From positions 1 to 33,135 of the forward strand of contig CAJMOW010000007.1 of assembly GCA_905215145.1 (NCBI GenBank): 33,135 nt of DNA, read 5' to 3'. The stretch's first letter is position 1, and each line of letters starts with the position of its first letter. Made by a program: the position numbers and the translations under genes. Under the pieces are notes generated by a model. The model worked only from the letters and a program-made list of their open reading frames with translations. It made no database searches and was not told where the DNA came from. The stretch comes from an uncultured bacterium (GTDB taxonomy: Bacteria > Bacillota_I > Bacilli_A > RF39 > UBA660). Shown here piece by piece: positions 24,986 through 33,135 of this stretch.

Positions 24986-26203
24986 ATGGCTAAATTCTTC
25001 TTTAGAGGTTTAAAAGAAAAGTACAGTGCAGAATTGCACGCTAACGGATTCTATGTAGCTACTGATACACATGAGCTTATTGCTGGTGGTGTAACTGTAG
25101 GTATTAATCCAGAACAGATGCAAACTATTTTAGATTTCATGGCTAGCAAAGGTCAACCTAATGGACTAGCTACTCTTGACGAGAATGGTAAAGTACCAGT
25201 ATCTCAATTAAATGGAGAACTTGCTAGAGTAGTAGGTTTGGAATCTTTTGTAGCTAATAGAGCAGCTCTAGATAGTATTGAAGCAGAAGTGGGAGATAAA
25301 TATTATACTGAAGCAGAGAAGAAGATTTACACTAAGACAGTAGATGGTTGGGATGAAGGTCAAGAGCCTCATAGTGATACTATCTACAATCACAGACTTC
25401 CGGACTCAGAAGGTAGAACTAATGTAATCTATAGATGGGATGGTCAGACGATGGTAGAAATTTCTGCTTCTATTGCTCTAGGTGAAGTAGAAGGAACTGC
25501 TTATGAAGGTAGTAAAGGTAAAGCTAATGCTGATAAAATTACTAAACTGCAATCTGACCTAACTTATGTAGCTAATACATTAATTCCTGAAATGAATACT
25601 AATACGGCTAAAGCTTTAGCTCAAAAAGTAGACTGGGATGCAGCTAAGAAAGTAATTAGTTTACCAGCAGACGGTTCTATTTCAGCATTAAGACCGGGTC
25701 AAGAAGGTGTAGAGAGTCCTGAAGGTGGAGTTCTTGTTGCCCAAAGACAATATGATTCTGATGTAGTTACAGAGATTGGTACTACTAAGAATAAGTTAAC
25801 TCTTAATTCAATTGATGGTAAAGTTAAGGTTGATTATCCTGGTGGTTCTAAGACCGTAGCATATGCAGAAGATGTTGCTACTAATGAAGCATTTGATGAA
25901 CTAAACACAAAGGTTGGAGATCCAGGTAATGGTAGTACAGTTCCTCCCACTGGAATCTTTAAACTGATTCATGATGATGAGGTTACTGTAGCTGAAGCTC
26001 TTAATGATTTGAATGAAAGAGTTGGAGAGACTCCAGTAGTGGATCAAATTCAAACGGCAGTTGACGCTCTGAAAGGCGGAGTATCTACCGAATATGATAC
26101 ATTAAAGAAGATTGAAGACCTACTTAAACAAGGAGATACTGATACTTTAGCAGCAGCTAAAGAGTATACAGATGCTTCATTTGAGTGGTTTGATGTAGAG
26201 TAA
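24986..26203 (+). CDS. Fibre/appendage protein (405 aa)
   Basis: I chose the ATG at 24986 (MAKFFFRGLKEKYS) over 24968. It sits 2 bases after the previous stop in the recurring TAATTATGG junction, and six upstream residues would only come from overlap. The N-terminus reads FFFRGLKEKYSAELHANGFYVATDTHELIAGG, which resembles an N-terminal docking segment of fibre proteins. Next comes GLATLDENGKVPVSQLNG, a common fibre motif, then mixed helical and beta segments. The C-terminus ends FEWFDVE, recalling the LSWTDV end of the preceding protein. It is followed by a strong hairpin. It is probably part of a tail fibre; the partner is unknown. Confidence 0.7.
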   Translation: MAKFFFRGLKEKYSAELHANGFYVATDTHELIAGGVTVGINPEQMQTILDFMASKGQPNGLATLDENGKVPVSQLNGELARVVGLESFVANRAALDSIEAEVGDKYYTEAEKKIYTKTVDGWDEGQEPHSDTIYNHRLPDSEGRTNVIYRWDGQTMVEISASIALGEVEGTAYEGSKGKANADKITKLQSDLTYVANTLIPEMNTNTAKALAQKVDWDAAKKVISLPADGSISALRPGQEGVESPEGGVLVAQRQYDSDVVTEIGTTKNKLTLNSIDGKVKVDYPGGSKTVAYAEDVATNEAFDELNTKVGDPGNGSTVPPTGIFKLIHDDEVTVAEALNDLNERVGETPVVDQIQTAVDALKGGVSTEYDTLKKIEDLLKQGDTDTLAAAKEYTDASFEWFDVE

Positions 26204-26207
26204 AATA

Positions 26208-26238
26208 ATAAAGGAGGAGCTGAATACTTCTCCTTTAT
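26208..26238 (+). terminator. Intergenic hairpin before the SGNH fibre gene
   Basis: ATAAAGGAGGAG pairs with CTTCTCCTTTAT over 12 bp (one wobble) around a 7-base loop. It lies directly after the 26203 stop and 13 bases before the next ATG. The following sequence (ATAATCT) is a poor U-tract, so it could be a weak terminator, a processing site or an mRNA-stability hairpin. Confidence 0.45.
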
Positions 26239-26251
26239 ATAATCTAGTGAT

Positions 26252-28852
26252 ATGGCAATTAATAAGAAATTAATTCACTTTAAGAATAAAGAAGCTTTTG
26301 ATAGAGAGCTTCAAGCTGGAAACATAATGGACACTTCTATCTGTTGGATTCCAGACGCCAAATTTATTTACACCAGAGGAACTTATTGGTATTGCTCATC
26401 TAAATCTGATGCTGAAATTCAGCAATTGATATCTGACATAGAGACTCAGCTTAGCAATAAAGTTGATAAGGTAGAAGGTAAAGGACTTTCTACTAATGAC
26501 TTTACTGATGATTTATTAAATCTACTAAAGAAAGTAAGTAAGCCTCTTAACTATAAAGGTTCAGTTCCTACATATAATGACTTGCCCACTGAAGGTAATT
26601 TGGAAGGAGATGTATGGAATGTTACTAAAACAGATGTTAATTATGCATGGACTGGTACTGACTGGGATCCATTTGGTTCGTCAGCAGTAAATATTGTAGA
26701 TGACCTTACTACTGGAGGAGCGACTGCTGCATTATCTGCTGAACAGGGTAAAGTACTCAAAGGATTAGTTGATACTAAAGTAGATAAAGTATCTGGTAAA
26801 CAATTATCAACTAATGATTACACCACTGCTGAGAAGGACAAATTAGCAGGATTATCTAATTACAATGATGTAGACTTAAAAGCAAGTATTAAACTTAATT
26901 CCGATAACATAGCATCTATGGATGCAGCTTATAAGGCTGCTGATGAAGTTCTTCAGGATAATATAGATGCAGAGAAAGTTGCTCGTACTGCTGCTGACAG
27001 TAAATTACAGAACGATATTAGTGCAGAAGAGACTAGGGCTGTGTTAGCTGAATCTGAGAATTTGGCTGTTATTAAGGCAGAGACAGAAAGAGCTAAAGCA
27101 GCAGAAGACGAAATCAGAGCTGTTGCTGGAGGCAGTAGTACTGCCGATGGTGGGGATATTCCTATCTGTCCTTTATATAGACAAGCTAATATAATGTATA
27201 CTAAAGTATCAGAAAATATCAAAGATACAGCTACTCTTGCAGCATACATTATGTGTTATAACAAGCCTTACATAGGCAAGCCTATCAATAGAATTAAAAT
27301 GATGCTTGCCACTCCAGGTAGATGTAGAATCTCCATCTTCAATGAACATATCTTTGATGCTAATCCTACTTTAGAAGCTTCATTAGTTAAAGATTTAGTG
27401 AATGTCGTATGTACATCCACTGGTTATAAATATTGGGATTTAGATGAAGATGTAGTAGTAGAAGAGGGGCAATTCATTGGTGCTTGGTACACAGCTGATT
27501 GTGCTAGATACACTTACAATAATGATTTAACCTACCAGACTGCATATCCTTCTGGATGGATTGGGATAACCAACTTAACAACAGAAGCGATACATAAAGA
27601 AGATTGGGAGAATAGACGTTCTCCAGGATATTTAAATGTAGGATTGTATCGTAGAGGTGATGGTTCAGACTTTGAATGGGGCAAGCTAGATGAATCAGCA
27701 AATACTCGAAGCAGTGTTGATAATGCTTATTATCCCAGGGGACAGGAAAAGTTAGTAGGTAAAACCATCTACAAACTAAGATTGAAGGTTTTAACAGTAG
27801 GCTATTTGACTATTAACCTAATTAATAACTACGGTAAAGCTAATGCTAAAGTTCTTAAATCTTGGAAACTGTACATTAGGCAATTAGGAGTCCAGACAGT
27901 GAGACTTCCAGAGGACATTACTTTAGAAGCCGGGCAGGGCATCGGAGTATATGCAGAAGGTGATACCTGTGCTTTTGCTTATGGAGGAACGCCATTCGGA
28001 ACTAAATACGCATTAAATGGATGGTACCAATATACAGCACATAATTATGCTACAACTCCTGGAGGAAACACTAACCAGCCTTTAGGAATTGCTCTTATCG
28101 AAAGAGGTGGTAAACTATCATCCTTAGAAGATAAAACTATATCTATTCAAGGAGACTCAATTAGCACATTTGCAGGAACTATTACTGATGGTAATGCAAC
28201 TTACTACAGTGCATCTCACAAGTTTGTTAATAGTATTGATGCTACATGGTGGGGATTACTTATTAATGAGTGCAGAATGAGACTTATCAGAAACGATGCA
28301 TGGTCTGGCTCTAGAATCAGTGGTACTGGAGATAATGCTATGTGTAGTGTAGCCAGATGTTCCAATATAAGGCATATTAATTCGACAGTGGATACATATC
28401 AATATGGAGCTCCTGAAATCATAGTCGTAATGGCTGGAACTAATGACGTGTCTGGTAATGTAGAAATGGGAACAGCTGATGGAGCCGTTACTACCTATAT
28501 GGGAGCATTTAAAACTATGCTTGCTAATCTAAAATCGCAATGCAGAAATGCCAAAATAGTAGTATTCCAATTGTATAGAGGTAATGTTTTAGACTATGCT
28601 AATAGTGGTGGTAAGCACCAATATGAATATCAAGAAGCTATGGCAAATTTATGTAGAAGATATGGAGTTTACTATATAGGCCCGGAACATTTTGACTTAA
28701 GCTTTCCAAACCTACAGTATTGTACTTGTGATAACAGTTTAAGTGATTATGGACCTCCTACTTCCACTAGTACAGATTATCTACATCCTAACATGCAAGG
28801 TATGGAAAGAGTTTATGCTGGAGTTAGGGCTTATTTAGAGAGTTTATATTAA
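26252..28852 (+). CDS. Tail fibre with C-terminal SGNH hydrolase (esterase) domain
   Basis: An 866-residue protein. An N-terminal docking segment (LIHFKNKEAFDRELQAG ... DAKFIYTRGTYW) is shared with the 29803 gene. It is followed by an AALSAEQGKVLKG-type fibre segment, a coiled coil (about 220-290), beta-rich domains, and an SGNH hydrolase from about residue 630. Catalytic blocks are visible: GDSIS with nucleophile Ser636, a Gly block (SGSRISG), GTND with Asn731, and DYLHPN with Asp842 and His845. SGNH enzymes on phage fibres typically remove O-acetyl or other ester groups from surface polysaccharides, which would suit penetration of Bacteroides capsule. The full set of catalytic residues argues that it is active. 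Confidence 0.83.
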   Translation: MAINKKLIHFKNKEAFDRELQAGNIMDTSICWIPDAKFIYTRGTYWYCSSKSDAEIQQLISDIETQLSNKVDKVEGKGLSTNDFTDDLLNLLKKVSKPLNYKGSVPTYNDLPTEGNLEGDVWNVTKTDVNYAWTGTDWDPFGSSAVNIVDDLTTGGATAALSAEQGKVLKGLVDTKVDKVSGKQLSTNDYTTAEKDKLAGLSNYNDVDLKASIKLNSDNIASMDAAYKAADEVLQDNIDAEKVARTAADSKLQNDISAEETRAVLAESENLAVIKAETERAKAAEDEIRAVAGGSSTADGGDIPICPLYRQANIMYTKVSENIKDTATLAAYIMCYNKPYIGKPINRIKMMLATPGRCRISIFNEHIFDANPTLEASLVKDLVNVVCTSTGYKYWDLDEDVVVEEGQFIGAWYTADCARYTYNNDLTYQTAYPSGWIGITNLTTEAIHKEDWENRRSPGYLNVGLYRRGDGSDFEWGKLDESANTRSSVDNAYYPRGQEKLVGKTIYKLRLKVLTVGYLTINLINNYGKANAKVLKSWKLYIRQLGVQTVRLPEDITLEAGQGIGVYAEGDTCAFAYGGTPFGTKYALNGWYQYTAHNYATTPGGNTNQPLGIALIERGGKLSSLEDKTISIQGDSISTFAGTITDGNATYYSASHKFVNSIDATWWGLLINECRMRLIRNDAWSGSRISGTGDNAMCSVARCSNIRHINSTVDTYQYGAPEIIVVMAGTNDVSGNVEMGTADGAVTTYMGAFKTMLANLKSQCRNAKIVVFQLYRGNVLDYANSGGKHQYEYQEAMANLCRRYGVYYIGPEHFDLSFPNLQYCTCDNSLSDYGPPTSTSTDYLHPNMQGMERVYAGVRAYLESLY

Positions 28853-28869
28853 TAAATATGTTATAAATA

Positions 28870-28886
28870 GGGGGGGGCATTGCCCC
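28870..28886 (+). repeat. G8 tract within a short intergenic hairpin
   Basis: Eight consecutive G (28870-28877) are followed by CATTGCCCC, so the last four G plus C can pair with GCCCC around a 3-base loop. It is followed by TTCCTCC. The tract lies 35 bases upstream of the ATG at 28912 in an otherwise AT-rich spacer. Such G-tracts are prone to slippage and could vary expression of the downstream gene. Confidence 0.55.
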
Positions 28887-28911
28887 TTCCTCCTGTAATT
28901 ACTAAGTAATT

Positions 28912-29325
28912 ATGGGACAAATAACTGGTAAAGACAATAATAGAGTTCCTACCGTGAAAGAATGTAATGATGCTTATGGTGGCAATTATATGACAGAAAG
29001 TGAGGTAGCTGAAGCAATAAGTGATGCAACAGCTAATTTTTTGACCTCATCCGATTTCCAAATGTCATTCGGTGCTGCCAGTGGATATATTAAGTTCCCA
29101 AATGGATTTATGATACAGGCAGGTCACGGTGGAAGACAAATTACAGACAGACAAAGTTTGAGTTTTTATACTCCATTTCCAACCAAATGTGTTGCTGTAG
29201 TAGTATCAGGAGAACGAAGTGGGGATGGAGCTAATGGTTATAACTATGTATATAATGTAACCAGATACGGTTTTGAAGTTTCCTTTGATAAATCACCTGG
29301 TTATTATATAGCAATTGGATATTAA
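28912..29325 (+). CDS. Short fibre-tip protein with gp53-like C-terminal knob
   Basis: A 137-residue protein. The N-terminus, MGQITGKDNNRVPTVKECND, is a docking segment shared with the next gene. The C-terminal ~80 residues (GYIKFPNGFMIQAGHGG, FYTPFPTKCVAVVVSG, YGFEVSFDKSPGYYIAIGY) resemble the gp53-like C-terminal fibre domain, which ends in a characteristic YxIAIGY and forms the receptor-contacting tip of many phage fibres. It is probably a separately encoded tip or adaptor on a fibre. It starts in the TAATTATGGG context after the G8 hairpin. Confidence 0.7.
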   Translation: MGQITGKDNNRVPTVKECNDAYGGNYMTESEVAEAISDATANFLTSSDFQMSFGAASGYIKFPNGFMIQAGHGGRQITDRQSLSFYTPFPTKCVAVVVSGERSGDGANGYNYVYNVTRYGFEVSFDKSPGYYIAIGY

Positions 29326-29328
29326 AAT

Positions 29329-29750
29329 ATGGGATATATTACTAATTTGAGTTCAAATAGAACCCCCACAGTCCAAGCTTGTAATGAAGCATATGGTTTC
29401 GATGCAGGTTCTATATCGGGGGGGGGATTACTTTAGGACCACATGATTCTAATAGGTTCATGATTAATGTATATTATAATTCACCTGTAGATTTAAGAAC
29501 TATTTTAAAAGATACAGACCCAATTGATTGTGTATATGCATTTATAATTGTTGCTGAAGAAGTTTATCATACTGTCTGGCTGTATAGAGGGTCAGATGGT
29601 AAGTTTAAGCCTAATGGCTCTTGTTATAAAGATAACGATGGATATAGATTACATCTGCATATACAATGGCACAGCGATGGTACAGCAAGTTACGAACATA
29701 TATATTTGCAGCCTGACGGCTATACTATTGAGGCAAATTGGGTAGAATAA
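29329..29750 (+). pseudogene. Fibre-tip paralogue split by a nine-G tract (out of frame here)
   Basis: The ATG at 29329 opens MGYITNLSSNRTPTVQACNE, clearly paralogous to the start of the 28912 gene. The frame enters nine G (29418-29426) and stops at a TAG at 29434-29436 after 35 codons. The rest continues in another frame (ATG at 29460) for 96 residues to 29750. One extra G, or two fewer, would join the halves into a 140-residue protein (SGGGITLGPHDSNRF across the junction), nearly the same size as its 137-residue neighbour. The C-terminal part (WLYRGSDGKF, HLHIQWHSDGTASYEHIYLQ) looks beta-rich, unlike the neighbour's. It is probably a phase-variable tip gene in the off state; a sequencing error in the homopolymer is possible. 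Confidence 0.7.
29418..29426 (+). repeat. G9 homopolymer tract in coding sequence
   Basis: Nine consecutive G inside a short fibre-tip gene of an AT-rich genome. Ten or seven G restores one continuous frame. The tract would encode a Gly linker between the docking segment and the binding domain, so length changes of three would be tolerated and other changes would switch the gene off. Confidence 0.75.
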
Positions 29751-29773
29751 GACACTAGTACTTCCATGGTGTC
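29751..29773 (+). terminator. Intergenic hairpin after the split tip gene
   Basis: GACACTA pairs with TGGTGTC (7 bp, one wobble) around a 9-base loop, directly after the stop at 29750, followed by TATAATT. It is a weak terminator or processing hairpin, in the same position relative to its gene as the hairpin at 26208-26238. Confidence 0.35.
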
Positions 29774-29802
29774 TATAATTAACAACTTAAACATTTATAA
29801 CT

Positions 29803-31743
29803 ATGGCGGCAGAAGACCCTAGGTTTCTATTGCATTTCAAGACTTTAGCTAAGTTTAATGAGAAACTAGCTGATGGTACAGTGAGTGCAGACAAGCATCT
29901 AGTATTTATTAAGGATGCTAAGCAAGTATGGTTCAAAGGAACATATTATGCAGATAATGTTAAGATGGATGGTATTACTGACTTCTATAATGGCTGGAGT
30001 ATCACTCAGAGCAGTGCTACTACTCTAACTATAACTCTTACTGGCAAGAGATGGAATGCTAACACAAGAGCGTGGGAGGCTATTAGTAAACCTCTATCTG
30101 TTAACTCTGTTACTCAGTCTGTAGCAGGACTTATGAGTGCAGCAGATAAAGTTAAATTGGATGGATTGAATATTAATAACGTTAGTAATATATCATTCTC
30201 ATCAGATGCAGCTAAAGTAACAGCAACTATCAGCAAAGATAATGGTAATGCGGCTGATACTTCTACAACTGTGAATTTACCAGTAGCATCCTCTACTAGT
30301 GCAGGTTCTATGAGTGCTACTGACAAGATAGAATTAGATAGAATTAGTACTGCTAACTTTGCTCTTGGAGCAGTAACTCCTACTACATCTACTGTGAGAA
30401 TAGCTGCTAGTAAGACTACTATCTCTAGTGGAGCTAGTGCAGCCAACAACATTACTCTTCCAGCAGCTACTCAGTCAGTGGCAGGTGTAATGACAGCAGC
30501 AGATAAAGTTAAATTGGATGTTACACTTCCCAATTTAATCGATAGCAACAAAACTAATATAGATAATTACACTGTTAATGGCTTTAAAATTTCTACTAAC
30601 CCTGTATTAGATGGAGCTGATATCAAAATAACTGGATACACCAAACCTTCTACTACTGGAGCTTTAGCGGCCGCTGATAGTGTCAATGGTGCTCTTGGTA
30701 AGTTAGAGAAGAAATTGGATGATGAAGTAACTAACAGAACTAATGCTGTTTCAAATCTTACCAATACAGTAAATAGTAATAAGAGTACTATTGACAATTA
30801 TACTATTAACGGTGCTAAAATCTCTACTAACCCTAAAATAACTGTAACAGTAGGAGGATCTGGTAATGCTGTAACCACAGCTTCATTTAGTGGGACTGTG
30901 CTGACTCTTACTAAGGGAGCTACGTACAATAACTACTCTCATCCAACTGGTTCTGGGGCTAGTAAATCTACTGGTTTGTATAAGTTTAGTACGGATAGCA
31001 CTAGTCATATTAGCGGAGTTACAGCAGTAACTAAGTCTGATATAACTGCCTTAGGTATTCCTAGCTCTGATACTAATACTACTTATTCCTTCTCAAGTGG
31101 AACTGGTAGCTTTACTGTAACTCCTAGTGGAGGTTCTGCTCAAACGGTATCAATAGGTAAACCCTCTACAGCAGGTACAGCAGATAAGGTAGCTAATACA
31201 TTAACCTTTACTGGTTATCAATCTAAATCGTATAATGGATCTGCTGCTGTAAGCGTAGCTATTCCTAGTAAAGTTAGTGACCTAACTAATGATAGTGGGT
31301 ATATTACTAGTTACACAGATACTAAGAATACTGCTGGCTCAACTAACAGTTCGAGTAAATTATATTTAATTGGAGCTACATCCCAAGCTTCTAGTCCTGT
31401 TACTTATTCTAATTCAGGAGTATATACACAAAGTGGTGCTGTTTATGCATCTGCTGGGTTCTATGATACTTCAGACATGAGAGTAAAGGATAACATAGAA
31501 TCCATAGATGTATCTAAAGCTGATAAAATACGATTAGTAGAATTTGATAGAACAGACAGAGAACATCATGGCTACGGAGTTATAGCTCAAGAACTTGAAA
31601 CCGTATACCCATCAATGGTTAATACCGATGAGAATGGCTTTAAGACAGTTAACTATAGTGAAATATATGCAGTTAAAATAAAGTATCTTGAAGATAAAAT
31701 TGCAGCTTTAGAAGCCGTAGTCGATAAATTAATAAGTAAATAA
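29803..31743 (+). CDS. Tail fibre with C-terminal S74 intramolecular chaperone
   Basis: A 646-residue protein. The N-terminal docking segment (FLLHFKTLAKFNEKLADGTV ... FIKDAKQVWFKGTYY) matches that of the SGNH fibre. Next come three units of the type SVAGLMSAADKVKLDG, then two copies of IDNYTxNGxKISTNP, a Ser/Thr/Gly-rich shaft, and a C-terminal peptidase S74 / endosialidase chaperone domain: TSDMRVKDNIESI, then HHGYGVIAQELETVYPSMV, NYSEIYAVKIKYL and a terminal coiled coil. In this family the chaperone drives trimerisation and is cut off at a conserved Ser; here the candidate is Ser557, which would release about 90 residues. It is preceded by a short leader with a hairpin. Confidence 0.83.
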   Translation: MAAEDPRFLLHFKTLAKFNEKLADGTVSADKHLVFIKDAKQVWFKGTYYADNVKMDGITDFYNGWSITQSSATTLTITLTGKRWNANTRAWEAISKPLSVNSVTQSVAGLMSAADKVKLDGLNINNVSNISFSSDAAKVTATISKDNGNAADTSTTVNLPVASSTSAGSMSATDKIELDRISTANFALGAVTPTTSTVRIAASKTTISSGASAANNITLPAATQSVAGVMTAADKVKLDVTLPNLIDSNKTNIDNYTVNGFKISTNPVLDGADIKITGYTKPSTTGALAAADSVNGALGKLEKKLDDEVTNRTNAVSNLTNTVNSNKSTIDNYTINGAKISTNPKITVTVGGSGNAVTTASFSGTVLTLTKGATYNNYSHPTGSGASKSTGLYKFSTDSTSHISGVTAVTKSDITALGIPSSDTNTTYSFSSGTGSFTVTPSGGSAQTVSIGKPSTAGTADKVANTLTFTGYQSKSYNGSAAVSVAIPSKVSDLTNDSGYITSYTDTKNTAGSTNSSSKLYLIGATSQASSPVTYSNSGVYTQSGAVYASAGFYDTSDMRVKDNIESIDVSKADKIRLVEFDRTDREHHGYGVIAQELETVYPSMVNTDENGFKTVNYSEIYAVKIKYLEDKIAALEAVVDKLISK

Positions 31744-31745
31744 TT

Positions 31746-33135
31746 ATGGCAAATAAAGTAGCATCTAAACGATGGATTTATTCAAACTTCTCTGTAGGAA
31801 GCTCTAGTAATGAATGTGCTACTAAAACTGAAATTCTGGGATTTGGATTATATATAACTAATGATTCTAGTTATGCATCTAATCAACTAGTAAGGGAGGA
31901 AGATATTTACCTTCCAGCTTGGACATATTCTTTCTCAGTTTCTAATTGGGATAAAAATGTTGGAGAATCTGGTGGAACTACTTCCTCTATTAGTATATCT
32001 TCAAGCAAATCCAGACTAGGAACAACTGAAAGTGTAGGATGGAGTATAGATTCTTCTACAGTACCTAGCTGGATTACTTGGAATTCGTCAAGTATGACGT
32101 TTACAGTAGCATCAAATAGTAGTACCTCGTCCAGAACTGCTAATATCCATTTCAAGCAGGATGAATCCGGTAAGAGAGATTACGCTAGAGTTACTCAGTC
32201 TGGACATACTCAAGTTACTACCTATAATTATATCTTCTGGACATCAGCCAGTGGTGGTACAACTGCTAGTGGTTCATTTGGACAGTCTGGAAGTAGTATT
32301 CAGCCTGAAATATATAGTTACAGAGAAACAATAGTAGATGGTACAGTAACTTCACGTGATGCAGTAAGTTTTAGTTATACTGATATACCTAGCTGGATTA
32401 CTGGAAATGCTGTTAGTACAGGTTACAACCCTCCTAACTCTCCTACGTATTATGCTAAAATGACAGCATCTGAGAATACTTCAGTAGATGCTAGAGCTCA
32501 TGATGTAGTTATAACTCAGAGTGGTTCTGATAAAGAGATTACCATTTCGGTAAGCCAACCTGGTAAAGCTAATGATACTTATGTATTTACTATATCGCCA
32601 AATACATATGATGTTCCATATAGTGGTGCTTCTTTCATACCAAGAACAGTATCTACTAAGAATGGTAGTAAGATAGGTTATAGTTTAACTTCTGGAGAGA
32701 CCGATTGGGTAGTTGTAACCATAGATAGTAAAGTAGCTGTAGAGATACTGAAAAACACTACTTCTAGTACTAGAAGTACTACTCTAGTATTTACACAGAA
32801 TGAATCTGGTAAGACTCAATCTATAAAGATAACTCAATCTGGACATACTCAAGTTACTACCTATAATTATGTCTTTTGGACATCAACTAGTGGTGGTACA
32901 TCAACTAGTGGTTCATTTGGACAATCTGGAAGTAGTATTCAGCCCCAAATTTATAGCTACAGAGAAACAATAGTAGATGGTACAGTAACTTCACGTGATG
33001 CAATAAGTTTTAGCTATACTGACAAACCTAGTTGGATTACTGGAGAAGCTGTTAGTACAGGTTATAATCCTCCTAACTCCCCTACGTATTATGCTAAAAT
33101 GACAGCATCTGAGAATACTTCAGTAGATGCTAGAG
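31746..33135 (+). CDS. BACON-domain repeat protein, 3' end outside the window
   Basis: An open frame from the ATG at 31746 (TAATTATGGCAA junction) through the last base: 463 codons with no stop, so partial. After an N-terminal region (MANKVASKRWIYSNFSVGSS), Ig-like BACON units follow, each with W-I in the middle (VPSWITWNSS, IPSWITGNAV, KPSWITGEAV) and a final T-Q-S-G or S-Q-P-G strand (ARVTQSG, ISVSQPG, IKITQSG). Long BACON-repeat tail proteins are a known mark of crAss-like phages. These domains are linked to carbohydrate or mucin binding, so a role in holding the phage near the host is plausible. Units repeat with a 213-residue period at high DNA identity. Confidence 0.82.
   Translation, partial: MANKVASKRWIYSNFSVGSSSNECATKTEILGFGLYITNDSSYASNQLVREEDIYLPAWTYSFSVSNWDKNVGESGGTTSSISISSSKSRLGTTESVGWSIDSSTVPSWITWNSSSMTFTVASNSSTSSRTANIHFKQDESGKRDYARVTQSGHTQVTTYNYIFWTSASGGTTASGSFGQSGSSIQPEIYSYRETIVDGTVTSRDAVSFSYTDIPSWITGNAVSTGYNPPNSPTYYAKMTASENTSVDARAHDVVITQSGSDKEITISVSQPGKANDTYVFTISPNTYDVPYSGASFIPRTVSTKNGSKIGYSLTSGETDWVVVTIDSKVAVEILKNTTSSTRSTTLVFTQNESGKTQSIKITQSGHTQVTTYNYVFWTSTSGGTSTSGSFGQSGSSIQPQIYSYRETIVDGTVTSRDAISFSYTDKPSWITGEAVSTGYNPPNSPTYYAKMTASENTSVDAR
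32193..32496 (+). repeat. BACON tandem repeat, copy 1 (639-base period)
   Basis: This segment recurs at 32832-33135, exactly 639 bases (213 codons) later. By eye about 24 of 304 positions differ, so identity is near 92%. The period covers two BACON-like units. The match runs to the window end, so the full repeat length is not visible. Confidence 0.85.
32832..33135 (+). repeat. BACON tandem repeat, copy 2 (639-base period)
   Basis: Second copy of the 32193-32496 segment, cut off by the window end. Differences are scattered single bases plus a small cluster around 32885-32912 (ATCAACTAGT and TCAACTAGT replacing ATCAGCCAGT and ACTGCTAGT). This suggests fairly recent duplication or ongoing homogenisation. 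Confidence 0.85.

What the first reader, a model, noticed from the sequence alone, without database searches (positions are those of the whole stretch)
29329..29750. Phase-variable fibre-tip gene controlled by a nine-G tract
Two adjacent short genes share an N-terminal docking segment (MGxIT...NRxPTVxxCNxAYG) but have different C-terminal domains. The second is broken exactly at a G9 homopolymer; ten or seven G would give a 140-residue protein matching its 137-residue neighbour in size. A run of nine G in AT-rich phage DNA, located between the docking part and the putative binding part, is what a contingency locus for receptor switching would look like. Slippage would turn one tip on or off and so change which Bacteroides surface types the phage binds.
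Basis: partly seen in the sequence, partly recalled or inferred. Interest (0 to 1): 0.85.

Follow-up and report, generated by a model that had tools for sequence, protein, structure and literature searches.

The report
Phage tail-tip gene split by G-tract
A gut phage carries a small tail-tip gene whose two halves are put in or out of register by the length of a run of G bases, and close relatives show the gene in different registers, so it looks like a reversible on/off switch for a surface-binding part.

Summary
G9 at 29418-29426 separates a 30-residue N-terminal segment, shared in motif with the neighbouring tip gene, from a body in another frame. G9 and a G8 at 28870 are the only runs of 7 or more of any base in the 33-kb window.

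Of 67 protein clusters matching the body, 22 are docked in frame through a Gly2, Gly3 or Gly4 linker; most of the others show the tract in one of the two other frames. The window's state is scattered on the body tree (7 rows, 7 changes), and one cluster has an identical body in another tract state.

The layout recurs. MT835470.1 has two tip genes with G9 right after a docking segment, one out of frame and one in frame, and no other G or C run of 7 or more in 117 kb. MT839382.1 has C9 at the same place.

Best reading: a slipped-strand contingency locus switching a phage tail tip on and off. Read-level switching, virion incorporation and receptor change are not shown; the host is not established.

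The parts
29329..29436 (+). Docking half of gene B, as read in the window: 35 residues, ending MGYIT...SISGGGLL then TAG
29363..29367 (+). C5 run inside the docking segment; 3 of 67 relative clusters read as if this run had changed and the body frame was regained at the G tract
29418..29426 (+). G9 tract, the frame-deciding element
29427..29750 (+). Body of gene B in another frame than the docking half; first ATG at 29460 (96 aa); novel predicted beta-rich fold
28912..29325 (+). Gene A: intact 137-aa tip protein with the same docking motif and no internal tract; Gp53-like_C / R-pyocin fibre-tip relative
28870..28877 (+). G8 tract in the gap before gene A, in the left arm of a predicted hairpin (28869-28891)
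28892..28916 (+). Second predicted hairpin, holding the start codon of gene A (28912-28914) in its right arm
26252..28852 (+). Upstream fibre protein, 866 aa, with a C-terminal GDSL/SGNH hydrolase domain
29803..31743 (+). Downstream 646-aa fibre protein with a Peptidase_S74 chaperone domain

Best explanation
Gene B is a phage-borne contingency locus. A short N-terminal segment, inferred to attach the tip to the fibre, is joined to a receptor-facing body through a run of G that encodes a glycine linker. Slippage of the run during DNA replication changes its length. In one frame class the docked tip is made (139-141 aa in most relatives); in the other two the docking segment ends at or just after the tract and the body is cut off from it. 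Gene A, beside it, carries the same docking motif without a tract and stays on. Shown here: the tract, the broken frame, all three frame states among relatives, repeated change of state on the body tree, and recurrence of the layout in other phages. Inferred: slippage as the cause, docking by the N-terminal segment, a binding role for the body, and a benefit from switching.
For: (1) Tract against background. (2) Frame states of 67 body clusters, 979 member sequences: docked in frame 22 clusters (666 members; linker Gly2 in 5, Gly3 in 16, Gly4 in 1); frame entered from an internal ATG upstream of the tract 11 clusters, plus 3 similar ones classed as other; body starting at the internal M-I-N or later 23 clusters; docking start with C-run change and body frame regained 3 (8); docked but linker region deleted or recombined 5 (5). 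(3) P0003 and P0004 have identical bodies and differ by one glycine in the linker; the window's body is identical to that of P0001, which is in another tract state. (4) Tree of 35 rows: the window's state, 7 rows, needs 7 changes; starred branches alone force 3. (5) Same-database comparison: gene A, without a tract, has 34 of 41 rows full length with the MGQI start (1177 of 1184 members). (6) MT835470.1: the docking motif used occurs twice in six frames of 117 kb, each time followed by G9, once out of frame and once in frame; no other G or C run of 7 or more. (7) MT839382.1: a docking segment 59% identical to that of the second MT835470 tip is followed by C9 at the same place. (8) A fibre-type gene in a portal relative is broken at a G8 between N-terminal part and body.
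Against: No read-level data, so variation inside one phage population is not shown. The frame states of relatives are read from predicted proteins, not from DNA: none of my DNA scans found a body relative. Some undocked rows may be 5'-truncated contigs. 17 of the 23 body-start clusters (75 of 127 members) also carry shortened or altered bodies, as expected if some off copies are decaying rather than waiting. The docked and internal-ATG labels are somewhat clustered on the tree (24 and 4 of 500 shuffles as low), so some states are inherited for a while. The docking segment is poorly modelled (pLDDT about 41-52 in the first four ten-residue blocks), so docking is not supported by the model. The body matches no known fold or family. 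9 of the 12 tracts of G8 or longer found in 25 records are not in fibre-type genes.
Confidence: 0.74

Rival explanations
1. Decaying gene: the tip is being lost, and G-run indels are only the commonest first hit. Off copies do not come back.
For: 17 of 23 body-start clusters carry deletions or altered ends; one docked cluster, P0065, is also cut short.
Against: Six body-start clusters (52 members) and the window keep an intact 96-97-codon body, several within 2-6 residues of a docked relative. The window's state is scattered over the tree. A long G run kept at the same place in several unrelated tips, in genomes otherwise almost free of long runs, is not expected of neutral decay.
Confidence: 0.13
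2. Programmed slippage of RNA polymerase or ribosome at the tract makes a fixed small share of docked tip from an out-of-frame gene.
For: A G9 run is a plausible slippery site; a poly-A frameshift in a Campylobacter phage methyltransferase gene was explained this way by its authors (PMC2853527, passages).
Against: 22 of 67 clusters read docked in frame from DNA with two, three or four glycines, so relatives need no recoding; a conserved out-of-frame arrangement, the mark of programmed recoding, is absent.
Confidence: 0.08
3. Assembly or sequencing error in the window: the real gene is uninterrupted.
For: One consensus sequence only; homopolymers are error-prone.
Against: The same and the third frame state recur in clusters with up to 78 members, in several body lineages, and an out-of-frame G9 tip occurs in an independent record.
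Confidence: 0.05

Closest known systems
Homopolymeric-tract contingency loci of Campylobacter and Helicobacter (PMC8355987, abstract in the search listing; PMC2823697, passages)
   Same: G or C run inside a coding region, length change shifts the frame, surface-exposed product, on and off states both found.
   Different: Carried by a phage and acting on its tail tip. The tract lies between an attachment segment and a body and itself encodes the linker.
Invertible tail-fibre segments of phages Mu and P1 (recalled; mentioned in passages and reference list of PMC6286511)
   Same: Reversible change of the phage's own adhesion part in a minority of particles.
   Different: Those use a site-specific recombinase and inverted repeats and exchange one tip for another. 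Here no well-matched inverted repeats were found and the change is on/off.
Diversity-generating retroelements on gut-phage fibres (PMC8008677 and PMC12386605, passages)
   Same: Targets the binding end of a tail protein in gut phages.
   Different: Those change residues by reverse transcription; here only frame and linker length change.
Poly-A frameshifted methyltransferase gene of Campylobacter phage CPt10 (PMC2853527, passages)
   Same: Phage gene broken at a homopolymer.
   Different: Poly-A, not a structural tip, and read by its authors as possible transcriptional slippage.
Gp53-like C-terminal tail-fibre domain (PF21882) and R-type pyocin fibre tips
   Same: Gene A passes the Pfam cut-off (44.7 against 24.9 bits) and its model matches R1 pyocin fibre 6cxb at E 1.7e-4.
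   Different: The body of gene B does not match either.

Membership tests
Homopolymer contingency locus | Run length stands out from the genome background | tested here: met
Homopolymer contingency locus | Length change moves the downstream coding part in and out of frame | tested here: met
   Three frame states among relatives, read from proteins
Homopolymer contingency locus | Near-identical genes occur in different states | tested here: met
   Window body identical to P0001; 7 changes for 7 rows
Homopolymer contingency locus | Mixed and reversible states within one clone | not testable with these tools
   Needs raw reads or passaged stocks
Homopolymer contingency locus | State changes a phenotype | not testable with these tools
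   No isolate
Programmed recoding site | Out-of-frame arrangement conserved among relatives | tested here: not met
   22 of 67 clusters are in frame
Invertible fibre cassette (Mu/P1 type) | Well-matched inverted repeats flanking alternative tip segments | tested here: not met
   Within 26200-31800 only imperfect pairs, 74-93% complementary and 14-27 nt; recombinase gene not searched for
Diversity-generating retroelement | Reverse transcriptase with template and variable repeats | not tested
   No search aimed at this was made
Gp53-like_C tail-fibre protein (gene A) | Pfam PF21882 match above cut-off | tested here: met
Gp53-like_C tail-fibre protein (body of gene B) | Pfam or PHROG match of the 96-aa body, or of intact relatives | tested here: not met

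The most novel reading that the evidence does not exclude
A general phage strategy: gut phages keep a modular set of small tail tips, each with a common docking segment, a G or C run that encodes the linker, and an exchangeable body. Slippage gives every stock a mix of on and off tips, and recombination between docking segments swaps bodies. The genomes otherwise avoid long runs, so the tracts are kept by selection.
Probability: 0.45. Interest if true: 0.85.

Novelty: new variant of a known kind. Interest (0 to 1): 0.72.

Why it matters
Phase variation by homopolymer slippage is well described for bacterial surfaces, including phage receptors. Here the phage side would use the same device on its own adhesion part, with no recombinase or reverse transcriptase. 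That offers a testable account of how gut phages follow hosts that keep changing their surface, and warns that out-of-frame small tail genes in metagenomes may be switches rather than assembly errors. None of my ten literature searches listed a homopolymer-switched phage tail tip; the library holds open-licence papers only.

Tried and rejected
DNA relatives of the body: none in viral contigs with the single protein or the alignment A1, none in genome contigs, none in annotated phages. Gene A: none in viral contigs; in phages only one weak Salmonella phage hit, E 8e-3. The 461-aa tail protein gave none. The second MT835470 tip gave none in viral contigs. The portal gave 47 loci and 4 MAG loci; gene A's protein matched in none of the 25 records searched (which had no positive control).

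A DNA pattern for docking followed by a G run gave 52 viral contigs; on reading the frames I judged none to carry this docking family. A second pattern gave 2 contigs, neither convincing. The motif regular expression run over the loci held then matched only in L001.

Rejected: inverted-repeat switching; known RNA element near the tips, no Rfam match to E 1 in 26200-31800; intrinsic terminator at the G8 hairpin, none called by the consensus scan. The structure of the body relative gave no usable match in PDB or BFVD, best E 0.08 and 0.026; the PDB sequence search gave only chance-level hits for the body and two weak fibre hits for gene A, E 0.037 and 0.18.

Full report
What is there. The window is AT-rich phage DNA (35.5% GC). 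Its terminase and portal match PHROG families, and the nearest annotated record is MT835470.1, a human faecal phage, 79.8% identical over 40% of the first 25 kb. The portal's named relatives are distant, crAss-like and Flavobacterium phages at mostly below 30% identity (20 of 76 records listed). In the tail region an 866-aa fibre protein with an SGNH-type hydrolase end is followed by gene A (137 aa), gene B (broken), a 646-aa fibre protein with an S74 chaperone domain, and a further fibre-type gene that runs off the window.

The break. Gene B starts at 29329 and reads a 30-residue segment that shares a motif with the start of gene A. It then enters G9 (29418-29426) and stops two codons after the tract. 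The body lies in another frame. G9 and the G8 at 28870 are the only runs of 7 or more of any base in the window. Simulation makes the contrast clear: all 400 simulated windows had an A or T run of 7 or more, the real one has none, and a G or C run of 9 or more arose in 2 of 400. So long runs are rare in this genome and the two exceptions sit within 550 bases of each other at the tip genes.

Relatives of the body. A search of 5.8 billion proteins gave 67 clusters with 979 member sequences; I read all 67. Twenty-two clusters (666 members) start with a docking segment and pass through Gly2 (5 clusters), Gly3 (16) or Gly4 (1) into the body; 18 of these are 136-141 aa long. Eleven clusters (136 members) start at an ATG in a different frame upstream of the tract and enter the body through it; three more (37) are similar. 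Twenty-three (127) start inside the body, as the window's does. Three (8) keep the docking start, leave the frame at the C run and regain the body frame at the G run. Five (5) have the linker region deleted or recombined. The docking segments differ too: most are like the window's, P0003, P0004 and P0044 carry one like that of gene A, and P0025 carries a third kind. The out-of-frame starts of P0024, P0027, P0029 and P0059 look like other docking segments read in the wrong frame; that is my reading of the letters.

Change of state. On a tree of 35 rows (34 of the 67 clusters and the window; I left out 33 clusters, mainly shortened or recombined ones), the window's state needs 7 changes for 7 rows, no fewer than shuffled labels; well-supported branches alone force 3. 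The docked and internal-ATG states are more clustered than shuffled labels (24 and 4 of 500 as low), so states can persist. Most inner branches are weak (3 of 29 starred). The window's body is identical to that of P0001, which is in another tract state.

A comparison in the same database. Gene A has the docking motif and no tract. Of 44 rows found with it, 3 are gene-B proteins with an A-like docking segment. Of the other 41, 34 are full length (129-137 aa) and start MGQI (1177 of 1184 members); the 7 others have one member each. The two searches had different length limits (75-240 aa against 53-168 aa), so very short A fragments would have been missed.

The layout recurs. MT835470.1 carries two tip genes on the other strand from its tail operon. 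In both a docking segment is followed at once by G9. In the first the body (112-aa open frame) is out of frame; in the second it is in frame (164 aa). In its 117 kb the motif searched for occurs only at these two places, and the only other runs of 7 or more are a T7 and a T8. MT839382.1, a contig that reads as TAG-recoded, ends in a gene whose docking segment is 59% identical over the 39-column alignment to that of the second tip and is followed by C9 at the same place; the frame is open to the contig's end, 27 codons on. In a portal relative (L055) a gene beginning MASISKITIGGTTYDIKDATAR is broken at G8, and a 394-aa repetitive fibre-like frame continues in another frame with TAG read as a residue; the gene before it has an N-terminus like that of the window's 866-aa fibre protein (likeness judged by eye).

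Counter-examples. Not every docking-motif gene has a tract. By my regular expression the window has three such genes (A, B, and the gene at 31746) and one has a tract; MT839382.1 has two on the coding strand and one has a tract. Among 25 relatives' records searched for G8, 9 have matches. I count 12 distinct tracts: 3 are the fibre-type cases above (two in MT835470, one in L055), and the rest are intergenic or in genes I could not assign. MT835539.1 has a G9 that appears intergenic.

Structure. A model of P0015, a natural uninterrupted relative, has a confident beta-rich body (ten-residue blocks 83-93) and a poorly defined docking segment and linker (41-52 in the first four blocks); it matches nothing in the PDB or BFVD. 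The gene A model (mean pLDDT 69) matches the R1-pyocin fibre tip at E 1.7e-4, in line with its Pfam domain. A in the virion tip is thus a fair inference; B in the virion rests on position, the shared docking motif and the S74 neighbour.

How it most likely works. The run is long enough to slip during replication. A stock would then hold phages with the docked tip and phages without, while gene A stays on. This fits the repeated, scattered changes of state, the linker-length changes in multiples of one glycine in docked forms, and the absence of long runs elsewhere. Slippage rate and benefit are inferred. The off copies with damaged bodies (17 of 23 body-start clusters) show that some off states last long enough to decay.

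What is new. Bacterial contingency loci of this kind are well known, and phages are known to vary their fibres by inversion or reverse transcription. In my ten searches of an open-licence library I saw no report of a phage tail tip switched by a homopolymer. I read passages of nine papers and otherwise listings. I rate it a new variant of a known kind.

Noticed in passing
window 28869-28916: Two stacked predicted hairpins in the gap before gene A, the second holding A's start codon (-27.7 kcal/mol, z -4.4, 0 of 200 shuffles as stable); no Rfam match. The G8 tract forms part of the first stem.
   Followed up: partly
L084, L087, L091, L092, L099, L100, L104, L105, L107, L110, L111, L113, L116, L118, L120, L121, L123, L125, L126, L128: 20 of the 52 pattern hits share an unrelated short protein ending in a motif like NKPLTPRPENV followed by G10-G14, apparently in frame in some and out of frame in others: another possible contingency tract in viral contigs.
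   Followed up: no
L057, L058, L059, L061, L070: Apparently intergenic G8-G10 tracts in portal relatives, several followed by a similar stretch (AGTATAGCTTAAC or near it in L059 and L061).
   Followed up: no
P0031, P0033, P0034, P0038, P0046, P0055: Bodies with internal deletions, several apparently between short direct repeats, almost all in undocked rows.
   Followed up: partly
P0003, P0004, P0043, P0044, P0063, P0104: Chimeras of gene A and gene B (A-like docking on B body, or A body running into B), suggesting recombination between the neighbouring tip genes; some single-member rows may be assembly chimeras.
   Followed up: partly
L129 (MT839382.1) and L055: Both read as TAG-recoded: an 873-codon frame opens in L129 when TAG is read, and long frames open in L055.
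   Followed up: partly
window and MT835470.1: Scarcity of A or T runs of 7 or more (none in the window, two T runs in 117 kb) against 400 of 400 simulated windows having one.
   Followed up: partly
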